Below are positions 41,293 through 46,207 of a DNA stretch of 47,555 nucleotides, in pieces. A program made the position numbers and the translations under genes. This stretch comes from Alphaproteobacteria bacterium (GTDB lineage: Bacteria > Pseudomonadota > Alphaproteobacteria > Elsterales > Elsteraceae): positions 1 to 47,555 of the forward strand of contig RDXE01000050.1 of assembly GCA_004292755.1 (NCBI GenBank), read 5' to 3'. The first letter of the stretch is position 1. The number at the start of each line of letters is the position of its first letter. The notes below the pieces were generated by a model. The model ran no database searches, was not told the DNA's origin, and saw only the letters and a list, made by a program, of their open reading frames with translations.

Positions 41293-41319
41293 GGTCTCCA
41301 TAAGACTTTTGTGGAGACC
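41293..41319 (+). promoter_or_regulatory. Hairpin overlapping the ribosome-binding site of the MetX-like gene
   Basis: GGTCTCCA (41293-41300) and TGGAGACC (41312-41319) form a perfect 8-bp stem with an 11-nt loop. The 3' arm contains the GGAGA that serves as SD for the ATG at 41324. In the RNA it could hide the ribosome-binding site. No known riboswitch consensus was recognised. Confidence 0.45.
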
Positions 41320-41323
41320 CCTC

Positions 41324-42517
41324 ATGCTACCGCGTCTGTCCCGCCGACTGTTGTTGGCGGCCGGTGTTGCACTGTCCGCTGCCTCTCTCTCCCCCGGCGC
41401 CGAAGCGCAGGAGGTGGTGGAAAAGCGGGTGTTTGAACTGCCCAGTTACACCACCCGCAACGGCACCGAGCTGAAGCAGGTGCGGGTCGGCTGGCAGTCC
41501 ATGGGCACGCTGAATGCTGACCGCTCCAACGCCATCCTGGTCGCGCACTTCTTCAGCGGAAACAGCCACTTCGCCGGTCGCTACACCCCGCAGGATGCTG
41601 CCCCCGGCTACTGGGACATGATCATCGGTCCGGGCAAGGCGATCGATACGAATCGCTACTACGTCCTGTCGGTCGATAGTCTGATCAACCTGAACACCGG
41701 GGACGGTCGCACCGTCACCACTGGTCCAGCCTCGATCAACCCAGCCACAGGCAAGCCCTATGGCGCCGACTTCCCGGTCGTCTCCATCCGCGACTTTGTC
41801 GATGTGCAAAAGGCTGTGGTCGAAAGCCTGGGGATCACCCGCCTGCACGCCGTAGCCGGTGCCTCGATGGGCGCTTTGCAAGCCCTGGAGTGGGCGGTCT
41901 CCCATCCCCAGATGGTCAGCCGCGTGATGCCGGTGATCGGCACCGGCCAAATGGATGGCTGGACCATGGCTTGGCTGAACCTGTGGGCGGCACCCATCCT
42001 GGTCGATCCGAACTGGAATGGCGGCAACTACCATGGCGGCGCTGCACCGATGCGCGGCCTGACCGAGGCGTTGAAACTGGTCACCCTTCATGCCCGCTCA
42101 TCGGGCTGGGTGGAGCAGGTTGCCAGCAACCGTCCGGCTCAGGGCCAGAACCCCGGCCAGGCGCTCGCCCAGAAATTCCAGATCGAATCGCTGCTGGATA
42201 CGGCAGCGGCCGCCCGCGCCCGCATCTCTGATGCCGCTCACTTCGTCTATCTGGTGCGCGCCAACCAGCTGTTCCTGTCGGAGTACCCATCGCCAGAAGC
42301 CGCCTATGCCCGCGCAACGGCGCGGTTCCTGATCCTGCCGGCCGCCAGCGATGTGCTGTTCCCACCAGCCGCCAGCCAAGCCTTGCGCGACCTGCTGGTT
42401 CGCCAGGGCCGCACGGTGGAATACGCTGAAATCCCAGGTGTTGGTGGCCATGTGGATGGTATCGCACCACCGATTCTGCAGGTCGCAGATCGTATCAAAG
42501 CGTTCATAGATCGCTAG
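41324..42517 (+). CDS. Exported alpha/beta hydrolase related to homoserine O-acetyltransferase (MetX-like)
   Basis: This 397-residue protein has a twin-arginine-type leader (RLSRRLLLAAGVALSAA, cleavage near AEAQ at 29). The body has the MetX-family fold: SNAILVAHFFSGNSH, the nucleophile elbow GASMG with Ser181, LPAASDVLFPP for the acid, and GGHVDGI for the His. Cytoplasmic MetX makes O-acetylhomoserine. An exported relative is unlikely to use acetyl-CoA, so a hydrolase or esterase role in the periplasm is more plausible. That is inference. The ATG at 41324 is chosen over a TTG at 41309. Confidence 0.85.
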   Translation: MLPRLSRRLLLAAGVALSAASLSPGAEAQEVVEKRVFELPSYTTRNGTELKQVRVGWQSMGTLNADRSNAILVAHFFSGNSHFAGRYTPQDAAPGYWDMIIGPGKAIDTNRYYVLSVDSLINLNTGDGRTVTTGPASINPATGKPYGADFPVVSIRDFVDVQKAVVESLGITRLHAVAGASMGALQALEWAVSHPQMVSRVMPVIGTGQMDGWTMAWLNLWAAPILVDPNWNGGNYHGGAAPMRGLTEALKLVTLHARSSGWVEQVASNRPAQGQNPGQALAQKFQIESLLDTAAAARARISDAAHFVYLVRANQLFLSEYPSPEAAYARATARFLILPAASDVLFPPAASQALRDLLVRQGRTVEYAEIPGVGGHVDGIAPPILQVADRIKAFIDR

Positions 42518-43560: not shown

Positions 43561-43592
43561 GTGTTGTGACAACACTCGCCAATAAGTATAGT
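43561..43592 (+). promoter_or_regulatory. Sigma70-like promoter overlapping a 15-nt palindrome
   Basis: TTGTGA (43564-43569) and TATAGT (43587-43592) are separated by 17 bp and lie about 80 bp upstream of the repeat-protein ATG. The -35 hexamer is inside a perfect inverted repeat GTGTTGTGACAACAC (43561-43575), a suitable operator position for a repressor. No T-run follows, so it is not a typical terminator for the PilZ gene. Confidence 0.5.
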
Positions 43593-43672
43593 GATGATTA
43601 GCTTTGGTCGGCGCTCGCGAGAATTCCACGCGTGGACGCGCCCTGTTGTTATTGGATGTTTGAGCTACCACC

Positions 43673-46207
43673 ATGACGCAGCCCGCAACACGCGCCCGGA
43701 TCATCCGCGCTGTTATCAACGGAGAGTGGGCAAACCTCCAAGACCAGCCCGAGGATGAGCGTATCGTCGACGCCAATTTCCTGCGCCGCCTGTTGCTTGG
43801 CCTGGAGGTTGGGAGCCGTGGCGCCGGCGATCCAGCCGAGGTCACCATCACAGCCGCGGGCGTGCGGATCAAAGGGGCAACCATCAAGGGCAAGCTCGAC
43901 CTTGCGGATTGCTCTGGCATCGGTGGGGAGGGTCTGCCCGCGCTCATGCTCGAGGGCTGCCGCTTCGAAGGGGACGGCCACCCCGACTCCGATGAGCCAG
44001 ACGTGATGACCTGCCTCGACCTCTCCCACGCCCGCCTCGCGCGCTTGTCTCTCAACGGCTCCCGCTTTAGCCACCTCCGCGCTCCCCACTGCCGGATCGA
44101 TGGCCCGCTCGACATCTCCAACGTGCAACCCCTTGATGGGTGGGTTGCACCGGCCTGGCCCGGCGTCGATCCAGCTGCGTGGCGCGCGTATATGCAGGCG
44201 TGGCGGGATTGGCATGCCCGGCGGGTCAAGGCGTCAGTAGCAAACGAACGATTTGAGGAAGCAGAACCGGAAAAGCCGAAAGAACCAGAGGCAGAACACC
44301 GACCGCCCTGGCCGACAGCTGTTGGTGCGCACTGCTGGATCAACCTGCGCGGCGCCCAGATCGACGGTGACCTAGCCGGAGCCAACGCGAAGCTTCTGGT
44401 CGCCCCACCGGCGAAAGGCAGCTCTCTCCATCGTTACGCGTTAGCCTTGGATAATGCGGTCATTCACGGAAGCGTCCGTCTCAGCCCTGGGGTCATGGCT
44501 TTTGGCGGTGTCTCTTTCCACACCGCTGCTATCGACCGCGACCTCGATATGAGGGGCGCGATCTTAACCGAGAGCGGCAACGGCATCGCACTCGCGGCCA
44601 GCCAAGTCTCAGTTGGCGGGACAGCCGGATTCAGCCAGCAGTTCTCAGCGAAGGGAACGATTTGGCTGTTTGGAGCAAAGATAGACGGCAGCCTCGACAT
44701 GGATGGCGCAATTCTGGACGGCTCCGGCGACAATGCATTAGCCGCCGATAATCTCTTTGTCGGTGGTTCAGCTTTCTTGCGGAATAATTTCAGTGCGAAG
44801 GGGCCGATCAGGCTGTTAGGAGCAAAGATAGACGGCAGACTTGACATGGATGGCGCAGTTCTGGACGGCTCCGGCGGTAATGCATTAACAGCCGATGGTC
44901 TCTCTGTCGGCGGTTCAGCTCTCTTGCGAAACAATTTCATTGCGAAGGGAACAATTTGGCTCCTCGGAGCAAAGATAGACACAACCCTCGACATGGGTGG
45001 CGCAGTTCTGGACGGCTCCGGCGGTAATGCATTAACAGCTGATGGTCTCTCTGTCGGCGGTGTAGCTTTATTGCGGCATCATTTCATTGCGAAGGGGCCG
45101 ATTCGGCTGTTGGGAGCGAAGATAGATAGCGGCCTCGACATGCATGGCACTATCCTGGATGGTTGTGGTCAGGCAGCATTGAATGCTAGTAACGCTTCAA
45201 TTAGGGGTGATTTACTCTTAGGTGATCCATTTATCGCAAAAGGAGAACTGATTCTGCTAGGCATCAATATTAAACAAGATTTCCAAATGATTAATGCAAA
45301 AATTTCAAAAAATGATGCGCAGCAGAATTCATCTGCAATAAATCTTCAGTCAGCACGCATTCAGGGGCGTTTTGCTCTGCAAGAAAATCTATTCTCTGGC
45401 TCAATTGTTTTTTCTGGTCTTGACGTTGGCTGCCTTGCAGATAGTGAGTCAGGGTATGAGGGCGCTGAACGATTGGTGCTTGATGGATTTGTCTACCATC
45501 GACTAGAGCAACCGATACTGGATGAAAAGCACAAGACTGCTGCCCTATCGCGAAAGGCTTGGCTGGCCCGAGACACAGAGTACCACGCGCAGCCCTACAT
45601 TCAGCTTGCGCGACGGCTGACCGCGCAAGGATACAGCGAGGAAGCAGGTCAGATCCGGGTATTCAAAGAACAACAAGAGCAGCGGCGTCGCTGGAAGGCG
45701 TTGGCTAATCTCAGTCTCAGCTGGCCAATCAGAGGGCTGGTATACTGCGTGATTTGGCTGTTCGGCCTCTTCTTCGGGTATGGCTACCGCCCCACTCGAG
45801 CAGTTGCGACGTTGATGGGCGGCATCGTCTCCGGATGGCTGTTCTTCTGGCTGTTAAACGGCGCAGGGCTCATGGTGGTTGACCAGCAGGCTGTCGCGGC
45901 CATGGTCCAGGGCACGGATGTTGGCGCGAGTCTGGCGGCGGGGCCGGTCGCCAAGGATATTCCCTGCGGCGATCAAATCCGCTCGTTCCTCTACGCATTG
46001 GATGTGTTTATCCCGCTGGTCGACCTACGACAGGAATCAAAGTGCGAGATCGGCTTGGCAGTTGGGTATGCTGAGCCGTGGTTTCCCGGCAGCGCCGACG
46101 TCGCGCGCTATCTGAAAGCGCTTTACGCCATCGCGGGCTGGCTGATCACGTCGCTCAGCATCCTCACCTTCTCCGGCTTGCTGCAGCGGCGCGATCAGGA
46201 TGTTTGA
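43673..46207 (+). CDS. Large beta-solenoid-like membrane protein with 49-residue tandem repeats
   Basis: This 844-residue protein is of unrecognised function. The N-terminus (1-130) is polar, with stretches such as ITAAGVRIKGATIKGKLDLA. A charged segment rich in Glu/Pro/Lys follows near 185-215. From about 230 to 580 it is a coil-type solenoid of units with the recurring pattern LLGAKIDGxLDMxGAxLDGSG, including four close 49-residue repeats starting at residues 326, 375, 424 and 473. The C-terminus (about 687-840) has three strongly hydrophobic segments (VYCVIWLFGLFFGYGY, LMGGIVSGWLFFWLLNGAGLMVV, LYAIAGWLITSLSILTFSGLL). The pattern resembles pentapeptide-like membrane-associated proteins of actinobacteria and proteobacteria. 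G+C is uneven along the gene, with a patch near 36% at 45181-45360. There is no signal peptide at the start. Confidence 0.8.
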   Translation: MTQPATRARIIRAVINGEWANLQDQPEDERIVDANFLRRLLLGLEVGSRGAGDPAEVTITAAGVRIKGATIKGKLDLADCSGIGGEGLPALMLEGCRFEGDGHPDSDEPDVMTCLDLSHARLARLSLNGSRFSHLRAPHCRIDGPLDISNVQPLDGWVAPAWPGVDPAAWRAYMQAWRDWHARRVKASVANERFEEAEPEKPKEPEAEHRPPWPTAVGAHCWINLRGAQIDGDLAGANAKLLVAPPAKGSSLHRYALALDNAVIHGSVRLSPGVMAFGGVSFHTAAIDRDLDMRGAILTESGNGIALAASQVSVGGTAGFSQQFSAKGTIWLFGAKIDGSLDMDGAILDGSGDNALAADNLFVGGSAFLRNNFSAKGPIRLLGAKIDGRLDMDGAVLDGSGGNALTADGLSVGGSALLRNNFIAKGTIWLLGAKIDTTLDMGGAVLDGSGGNALTADGLSVGGVALLRHHFIAKGPIRLLGAKIDSGLDMHGTILDGCGQAALNASNASIRGDLLLGDPFIAKGELILLGINIKQDFQMINAKISKNDAQQNSSAINLQSARIQGRFALQENLFSGSIVFSGLDVGCLADSESGYEGAERLVLDGFVYHRLEQPILDEKHKTAALSRKAWLARDTEYHAQPYIQLARRLTAQGYSEEAGQIRVFKEQQEQRRRWKALANLSLSWPIRGLVYCVIWLFGLFFGYGYRPTRAVATLMGGIVSGWLFFWLLNGAGLMVVDQQAVAAMVQGTDVGASLAAGPVAKDIPCGDQIRSFLYALDVFIPLVDLRQESKCEIGLAVGYAEPWFPGSADVARYLKALYAIAGWLITSLSILTFSGLLQRRDQDV
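44648..45235 (+). repeat. Four 147-bp tandem repeats inside the solenoid gene
   Basis: Units begin at 44648, 44795, 44942 and 45089, each starting with GCGAAGGG and exactly 147 bp (49 codons) long. The second and third share long identical stretches, including the GGCGCAGTTCTGGACGGCTC region. The second half of the fourth unit diverges, and a fifth, degenerate unit starts at 45236 (GCAAAAGGAG). High identity implies recent duplication or gene conversion, so the copy number may vary between strains. Confidence 0.9.

What the first reader, a model, noticed from the sequence alone, without database searches (positions are those of the whole stretch)
43561..46207. Mosaic beta-solenoid membrane protein behind a palindrome-controlled promoter
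Seen: an 844-residue gene with a GC-rich 5' end (one 60-bp sample near 67%), a 147-bp repeat block, a patch near 36% G+C at 45181-45360 and a GC-rich 3' end with three hydrophobic segments. Its likely promoter has a -35 inside a 15-nt perfect palindrome. Known: LxGAxIxGxLxxxGA solenoids with terminal membrane helices exist but lack a settled function. Inference: an acquired or chimeric surface or stress protein under specific control, and the best candidate for something undescribed here.
Basis: partly seen in the sequence, partly recalled or inferred. Interest (0 to 1): 0.7.

Follow-up and report, generated by a model that had tools for sequence, protein, structure and literature searches.

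The report
Solenoid protein with channel-like membrane pore
A large bacterial protein made of a long coiled sensor-like domain joined to a membrane part that is predicted to fold like an ion-channel pore; it belongs to a widespread, unnamed family whose members appear to sit in the membrane in either of two opposite orientations.

Summary
The gene (43673-46207, 844 aa), its 147-bp repeats, low-GC patch and hydrophobic C-terminus are real. The "palindrome-controlled promoter" is not above chance. The low-GC part is shared by a same-genus relative and a paralogue, so it is not a recent insert. AlphaFold2 gives a confident model (pLDDT 87): beta-solenoid (about residues 61-605), helical bundle, amphipathic helix, TM1, a loop with a short helix, TM2. 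Folded alone, the C-terminal part aligns best with TM-pore helix-TM channels: 48 of the 50 entries listed (32 of them Kir channels; Kir6.2 Z 9.1, 2.9 A over 91 residues), plus HalA, the Hailong phage-defence channel, and one unnamed protein. HalA is also Foldseek's top PDB hit for the whole protein (E 0.016). The K+ filter is absent; "PLVDL" stands there. Sequence profiles do not support homology to Ion_trans_2. The family is scattered over many phyla; no Pfam or NCBIfam model was found for its shared C-terminal part. Members with a signal peptide, including a paralogue in this genome, reverse the charge pattern of the pore loop (positive in 10 of 11 against 5 of 86), so are predicted inverted. 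Best reading: a solenoid-regulated membrane pore working like HalA. Channel activity, ligand and phage role are untested.

The parts
43673..46207 (+). whole gene, 844 aa
   Evidence: ORF; AlphaFold2 pLDDT 87.1, pTM 0.81 with a 50-row alignment
43853..45487 (+). beta-solenoid, about residues 61-605; in 50 aligned members 271-861 residues precede the QPY motif
   Evidence: Pentapeptide_3 below cut-off in this protein, E<=0.01 in 20 of 50 members
44648..45148 (+). 147-bp (49-residue) tandem repeat, 3.4 copies; residues 450-519 have no match in the same-genus relative
45130..45399 (+). low-GC stretch (37-40% G+C) at the end of the solenoid
45533..45706 (+). helical bundle (residues 621-678) with the (P)QPYxQLA motif; proposed coupler between solenoid and pore
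   Evidence: coupling is inference
45722..45784 (+). hydrophobic/amphipathic helix leading to GYGYRP (residues 684-704), perhaps at the membrane surface
   Evidence: interfacial position is inference
45791..45862 (+). TM1 (residues 707-730)
45983..46009 (+). predicted pore helix (residues 771-779, holds D777: D 50, E 2 of 52)
46010..46033 (+). predicted filter loop IPLVDLRQ (residues 780-787); D784 position is D 32, S 8, N 7, E 5 of 52
   Evidence: role as filter is inference
45965..45967 (+). Cys765, proposed disulphide partner of Cys791 across the pore loop
   Evidence: disulphide is inference
46043..46045 (+). Cys791
46091..46171 (+). TM2 (residues 807-833) with Gly822, invariant in 52 of 52
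46175..46204 (+). C-terminal tail GLLQRRDQDV (residues 835-844), RR at 839-840, predicted cytoplasmic
43561..43575 (.). 15-nt palindrome; regulatory role not supported
43564..43592 (+). sigma-70-like site, 9 of 12 matches
   Evidence: 2 found, mean 1.5 in shuffles

Best explanation
The gene encodes a membrane pore protein regulated by a cytoplasmic beta-solenoid. Shown by prediction: a long beta-solenoid, a helical bundle, then TM1 - short helix and loop - TM2 with the fold of P-loop channel pores. Inferred: the protein assembles as an oligomer (probably a tetramer like other P-loop channels); the pore loop, lined by oxygen-bearing side chains (D784 here) instead of TVGYG, forms a cation-permissive, not K+-selective, pathway; the solenoid recognises something in the cytoplasm and the bundle passes that to the pore. 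The closest working parallel is HalA, whose channel is blocked by poly-dA made by HalB. A likely use is an alarm or self-limiting membrane effector (phage or envelope stress); that last step is only a lead.
For: Full-length model pLDDT 87.1, pTM 0.81. C-terminal model (residues 595-844, pLDDT 81) aligned by VIA-align to 141 of Foldseek's 143 candidates: of the 50 entries listed, 48 are P-loop channels (32 Kir, 5 SthK, 11 others: AKT1, HCN3, a bacterial cyclic-nucleotide channel, CNG, Kv, THIK1, TRPV/TRPM family), one is HalA, one is titled only 'transmembrane protein'; Kir6.2 Z 9.1, 2.9 A, 91 residues; HalA Z 7.5, 4.3 A, 181 residues. HalA is Foldseek rank 1 in the PDB for the whole protein, probability 0.99, E 0.016. 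HalA as an ion channel blocked by poly-dA adducts of HalB: passage of PMC13275509. Against the same-genus relative, residues 766-844 are 86% identical (67 of 78), 231-540 only 40%. In 52 members D777 is D/E in 52, P781 in 51, the D784 position D/E/N/S in 52, W803 in 52. Loop cysteines come in pairs: of 86 members without a signal peptide 27 have exactly two and 4 have one; one row per 60% identity group, 20 and 3 of 53, as expected for a disulphide outside the cytoplasm; here they flank the pore helix. A copy is cargo in a lambda-like prophage between portal and terminase.
Against: No sequence-profile support for Ion_trans_2: hhalign probability 2%; with only pore helix to TM2, score 7.0 against 13.8 for the reversed template and a mean of 10.6 for block-shuffled controls, 60 of 60 as high. 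Foldseek E-values for the C-terminal model are all above 2; the aligner warns that Z under 13 for helical folds can be a common arrangement, and two thirds of the listed channels are Kir entries, so not independent. Over the whole family the pore is hardly more conserved than the solenoid (mean pairwise identity 36% at 767-840, 34% at 231-540, 24% around TM1). In 4 of 11 signal-peptide members the D784 position is R or K, which does not suit a cation pore in those. HalA could not be compared by sequence: a profile search of the PDB did not list it. No conserved partner gene was found; PADLOC model names near the gene (38 among 110 genes) against farther away (8 among 110) overlap within single proteins, so enrichment is unproved. 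No direct evidence for oligomers, ion flux or a ligand.
Confidence: 0.5

Rival explanations
1. A membrane-anchored scaffold: the solenoid is a protein-binding rod and the C-terminal helices are only an anchor; the channel likeness is a generic two-helix arrangement with a short helix between.
For: Only two or three hydrophobic helices; middling Z values; no sequence link to channels; family-wide conservation of pore and solenoid is similar. Solenoids commonly bind proteins (general knowledge).
Against: A pure anchor would not need a near-invariant D, P and W in the inter-helix loop, nor 86% identity there against 40% in the mid-solenoid in the same-genus pair; 48 of 50 listed structures are P-loop channels.
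Confidence: 0.3
2. Membrane-associated oxidoreductase, as related plasmid copies in Streptomyces are annotated.
For: Label on family members; an S. lividans gene of that label stands in a pentose phosphate gene run (table passage of PMC6302529; not tested for membership).
Against: No redox family among the Pfam and NCBIfam names matched by 50 members at the thresholds used; the label looks inherited, not tested.
Confidence: 0.03
3. Superinfection exclusion or anti-phage effector that depolarises the membrane on infection, with the solenoid as the phage sensor.
For: HalA parallel; prophage cargo position; patchy presence, 16 of 385 class genomes, own genome included; solenoid diverging faster than the pore in the same-genus pair.
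Against: Single gene, in some loci beside housekeeping genes such as recA or ruvB; kept next to the same genes in about ten Roseobacter-clade loci; no clear PADLOC enrichment; no match in 50,697 phage records with two members as queries.
Confidence: 0.2
4. An acquired chimera: low-GC solenoid DNA recently inserted into a GC-rich gene, with little functional meaning.
For: GC3 falls from 0.83 to 0.28 and returns to 0.80 within the gene.
Against: The dip is shared with a same-genus relative and a paralogue, and the architecture recurs over many phyla.
Confidence: 0.05

Closest known systems
HalA, ion channel of the Hailong anti-phage system (PDB 9nyi)
   Same: Top Foldseek PDB hit for the whole model; helical bundle plus pore align over 181 residues, chain 113-356.
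   Different: HalA chain is 333 residues, this protein 844; E 0.016 and 4.3 A rmsd only; no sequence match found; HalB partner not looked for with a profile.
P-loop channel pore domain (Kir, SthK, Ion_trans_2)
   Same: TM1 - pore helix - TM2 order and fold, 91 residues at 2.9 A to Kir6.2; a Cys pair round the pore helix, as in Kir channels (the Kir disulphide is recalled).
   Different: No TVGYG filter; no Pfam hit; no profile similarity.
Pentapeptide-repeat proteins (PF13576; Qnr, AlbG)
   Same: Solenoid; PF13576 in 20 of 50 members at E<=0.01; Qnr rows Z 11.6-12.7.
   Different: Repeat of 49 residues, read as two coils, here; a pertactin-complex chain and tailspikes score higher than Qnr.
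HglK, four-TM pentapeptide membrane protein of Anabaena
   Same: Membrane protein with a pentapeptide domain (passages of PMC8145042).
   Different: TM region N-terminal and repeats C-terminal, the reverse order.
Ionotropic glutamate receptors (recalled)
   Same: Signal-peptide members of this family would have an outside sensor domain and a pore loop entering from the cytoplasm.
   Different: No sequence or structure comparison made here.

Membership tests
Pentapeptide repeat (PF13576) | profile score over the gathering cut-off | tested here: not met
   18.3 bits against 27 for this protein; over cut-off in three of three relatives scanned
Pentapeptide repeat (PF13576) | right-handed quadrilateral beta-helix | tested here: inconclusive
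   Qnr and AlbG rows Z 11.4-12.7, but other beta-helices score higher
Ion_trans_2 / K+ channels | TM1-pore helix-TM2 fold | tested here: met
   on a predicted monomer only: Kir6.2 Z 9.1, 2.9 A, 91 residues; 48 of 50 listed rows are such channels
Ion_trans_2 / K+ channels | TVGYG-type selectivity filter | tested here: not met
   PLVDL at the place; alignment of 52 members
Ion_trans_2 / K+ channels | PF07885 or profile-profile match | tested here: not met
   no hmmscan hit; hhalign probability 2%; below shuffled controls
HalA (Hailong) | shared fold over sensor, bundle and pore | tested here: inconclusive
   Foldseek probability 0.99 but E 0.016; VIA Z 7.5 over 181 residues
HalA (Hailong) | HalB nucleotidyltransferase next door | not tested
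   no HalB profile used; upstream neighbours are PilZ-like, E22 esterase-like and SBP_bac_3-like proteins
HalA (Hailong) | binds oligo-dA | not testable with these tools
   needs biochemistry
HglK | N-terminal four TM helices, C-terminal repeats | tested here: not met
   order is reversed (for HglK)
Oxidoreductase | recognisable redox domain | tested here: not met
   none in this protein and none among the families listed for 50 members

The most novel reading that the evidence does not exclude
A widespread, unnamed bacterial family of beta-solenoid-gated P-loop pores that exists in both membrane orientations. Copies without a signal peptide (this gene) keep the solenoid in the cytoplasm and the pore loop outside, K+-channel-like; copies with a signal peptide (including the paralogue on contig 63 of the same genome) carry the solenoid outside and the pore loop inside, glutamate-receptor-like. 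Gain or loss of a signal peptide would have flipped the pore more than once, leaving the matching charge changes as a record.
Probability: 0.35. Interest if true: 0.85.

Novelty: new variant of a known kind. Interest (0 to 1): 0.66.

Why it matters
If right, a group of proteins now labelled 'hypothetical' or 'oxidoreductase' in many phyla would be a new class of regulated membrane pores, possibly relatives of a phage-defence channel. The two orientations in one family, even in one genome, would give a direct system for asking how an inverted channel pore arises, an open question for glutamate receptors (recalled).

Tried and rejected
Palindrome as operator: sites within 2 mismatches are fewer than in the control. 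Ion_trans_2 by profile comparison: negative twice; the channel reading rests on predicted structure only. PADLOC PDC-M32A, a weak hit in the solenoid: 1 of 50 members, 0 of 142 genomes, and none of 14 control genomes rang, dropped. Defence neighbourhood: 110 of 191 near genes and 110 of 205 far genes, drawn at random from non-redundant loci, scanned; 38 against 8 model names (25 of the 38 shown), but many are overlapping models of one protein, so not counted as enrichment. Conserved partner gene: among 776 neighbours of 79 loci, the clusters present in six or more loci (up to 10) come only from Rhodobacterales loci. Knotted solenoids (PMC13123833, outline with abstract, and passages): not tested. 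HalA paper (PMC12360457) not held. Literature: no listing showed a paper on this family (open-licence PMC only; listings, plus passages of PMC11925935, PMC8145042, PMC13275509, PMC6302529 and PMC11237479). Foldseek viral library: nothing at E<=0.001. A tree-based pair test of signal peptide against loop charge had one pair on well-supported branches and so cannot reach significance. More signal-peptide members were sought in another class (6 of 274 genomes matched) and one order (1 of 3, the query's own genome); the family members among those read were of the ordinary type.

Rows dropped or chosen: A5 uses 50 and A6 52 rows of about 90 members. The topology count (11 against 90) left out 6 rows without a clear pore motif or TM2; on checking, four rows had a misplaced motif or were cut (L053, L114, L119, L141) and were taken out (11 against 86), where near-copies were also thinned (10 against 53). 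L053 has a signal-peptide-like start but a different C-terminus and no pore loop. The 11 signal-peptide members were picked by eye, when loop charges of most had been seen, so not blind; the automatic call (12 of 82) had included three doubtful ones (L054, L135, L173) and missed L111.
Full report
What is there. The window holds an 844-residue gene at 43673-46207 +. Its start is GC-rich, GC3 falls from 0.83 to 0.28 and rises again to 0.80, and 3.4 copies of a 147-bp (49-residue) unit lie at 44648-45148. It stands 150 bp behind a PilZ-like gene (21.5 bits, just under the cut-off of 22.5). The proposed promoter is one of 2 sites where shuffles give 1.5; its palindrome has one exact copy in the genome, and sites within 2 mismatches are fewer than for a control pattern (6 against 12).

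The low-GC patch is not a recent insert. The one same-genus relative found (54% identity, its contig ends before the first 60 residues) and the paralogue on contig 63 show the same fall. Of 66 members with GC-rich flanks (of 85 measured), this gene included, 33 have lower GC3 in the late solenoid than in both ends, about 22 being expected. Against that relative, identity is 65% at 61-230, 40% at 231-540 and 541-605, 51% at 606-680, 52% at 681-765 and 86% (67 of 78) at 766-844. Over 50 family members the contrast nearly vanishes: mean pairwise identity 30-34% in the solenoid, 38% in the helical bundle, 24% around TM1, 36% from pore helix to TM2.

The family. Own genome included, matches were found in 4 of 60 relatives, 16 of 385 genomes of the class and 14 of 398 of the phylum (overlapping samples); 6 of 274 of another class matched with the signal-peptide subfamily as query. 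Some of these are weak. A scan of one genome for each of 84,980 species gave 147 pattern matches, 115 of them relatives, of which 79 loci were kept, in Cyanobacteria, Planctomycetota, Actinomycetota, Nitrospinota, Acidobacteriota, Bacteroidota and several proteobacterial classes. Plasmid copies: 36 of 72,556 records with a central member as query, 27 of them Streptomyces or Rhodococcus, some labelled oxidoreductase; 27 records with the window protein. None of 50,697 phage records, with two queries. Two viral contigs (identical over the stretch held) carry the same protein as a Desulfobulbaceae genome contig (957 of 957 residues after the start), on the strand opposite to the phage genes, between a lambda-type portal and a gpA terminase, with capsid E and head protein D genes nearby: a cargo position. 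Of Pfam families only PF13576 (20 of 50 members) matched more than one of 50 members, and no NCBIfam family matched more than 3, so no model covers the shared C-terminal part; the helical bundle gave faint TPR hits in two relatives (E 0.03 and 0.09).

Structure. The full-length model has pLDDT 87.1 and pTM 0.81. Residues 61-605 form a beta-solenoid that aligns with a pertactin-complex chain (Z 17.8), pertactin (13.7), tailspikes (up to 15.2), designed solenoids (about 13) and Qnr proteins (about 12). Then come a helical bundle (621-678) with the family's (P)QPYxQLA motif, a hydrophobic helix (684-704), TM1 (707-730), a loop with a short helix (771-779), and TM2 (807-833). Foldseek's best PDB match for the whole is HalA in complex with oligodeoxyadenylate, probability 0.99 but E 0.016. 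Folded alone (pLDDT 81), the C-terminal 250 residues give no significant Foldseek hit (best E 2.2). VIA-align on Foldseek's candidates (141 aligned) lists 50 entries: 48 P-loop channels (23 KATP and 9 other Kir, 5 SthK, 11 others including HCN3, CNG, AKT1, Kv, THIK1, TRPV6, TRPM3), one entry named only 'transmembrane protein', and HalA with Z 7.5 over 181 residues; the best is Kir6.2 with Z 9.1, 2.9 A over 91 residues. The Kir entries are one family, so this is fewer independent matches than it looks. I had guessed this fold from the motif before the model was made (note) and tested it first by profile comparison, which failed and failed again on the trimmed region. The claim therefore rests on predicted structure, not on sequence.

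The putative pore loop. Among 52 members D777 in the pore helix is D (50) or E (2), P781 is P in 51, the D784 position is D 32, S 8, N 7, E 5, Q787 is Q in 43, W803 is W in 52. TVGYG is absent, so K+ selectivity is not expected; a cation-permissive pore is inference. In the signal-peptide members the same position is D/E in 6, Q in 1 and R/K in 4 of 11 (motif column), so that inference does not carry over to all of them. Of 86 members without a signal peptide, the inter-helix loop has no Cys in 51, exactly two in 27, one in 4, three or more in 4; one row per 60% identity group gives 27, 20, 3 and 3 of 53. Pairs without singles suggest a disulphide, and so an extracytoplasmic loop; here these are Cys765 and Cys791, either side of the pore helix.

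Two orientations. Eleven members, including the paralogue on contig 63 of this genome, start with a signal-peptide-like segment (by eye). Their inter-helix loop has a positive net charge in 10 of 11 (mean +2.2), against 5 of 86 in the others (mean -3.9); Fisher p 2e-9. The last ten residues hold at most one K/R in 10 of 11 against 11 of 86. Thinned to one row per 60% identity group: 9 of 10 against 5 of 53 (p 8e-7), and 9 of 10 against 7 of 53. Automatic signal-peptide calling gave a weaker result the same way (8 of 12 against 8 of 70, p 1e-4). These p-values still ignore deeper relatedness; a tree-based pair test had one usable pair. On the tree the nine signal-peptide rows then counted need five changes, at least two by well-supported branches. 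In the group that holds seven of those nine (weakly supported) two members, L157 and L178, lack the signal peptide while keeping the motif that follows it elsewhere (by eye), and they have the acidic loop and the basic tail of the ordinary type. The K/R-rich stretch before TM1 is alike in both types (mean 5.4 and 5.6 of 30 residues), which does not fit a simple positive-inside reading and counts against. The two C-terminal domains are homologous (hhalign E 4e-16). The simplest reading is that the pore part can sit either way up. No structure of a signal-peptide member was predicted.

How it may work. The bundle and pore of rather constant length (143-285 residues from the QPY motif on, against 271-861 before it) and the HalA parallel suggest a sensor joined to a membrane effector. 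[quoted passage not shown] For this family the ligand is unknown, no conserved partner gene was found, and the defence-neighbourhood test was inconclusive. I put about 0.5 on a true solenoid-regulated pore and about 0.2 on a phage-related role.

Verdict. What deserves attention is the membrane end and its two orientations.

Noticed in passing
G000:C63:11975-14398 (L009:5976-8399): A second family member of the signal-peptide type lies in the same genome, with a positive pore loop and no basic tail; one organism would hold both orientations.
   Followed up: partly
L186:7977-10853 and L127: Family gene as opposite-strand cargo between portal and terminase genes of a lambda-like prophage in a Desulfobulbaceae genome.
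   Followed up: partly
L128, L133, L144, L169: Two family genes in tandem in Rhodobacteraceae, with the same upstream genes recurring in about ten loci.
   Followed up: no
L117:5854-8073: Gammaproteobacterial member whose C-terminus runs on past TM2 with a different sequence.
   Followed up: no
L053:4680-5858: A short relative with a signal-peptide-like start and solenoid but a different, single-helix C-terminus without the pore loop.
   Followed up: no
plasmid NZ_CP109348.1 252918-254375 (L188): Streptomyces plasmid copies annotated 'membrane-associated oxidoreductase', although no redox family was seen in the family; the label seems unfounded.
   Followed up: partly
window 43673-46207 model, Foldseek viral library: Paracoccus phage Shpa protein A0A0U2C121 matches the model with probability 0.93 and target TM-score 0.49 but E 0.34.
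   Followed up: no
window 44648-45235: Repeat units 1 and 3, and 2 and 4, resemble each other in their first 20 bases, hinting at duplication of a two-unit (294-bp) block.
   Followed up: no
window 41309-42517: E22-family MetX-like putative esterase (NCBIfam 512.5 bits, cut-off 450) two genes upstream.
   Followed up: no
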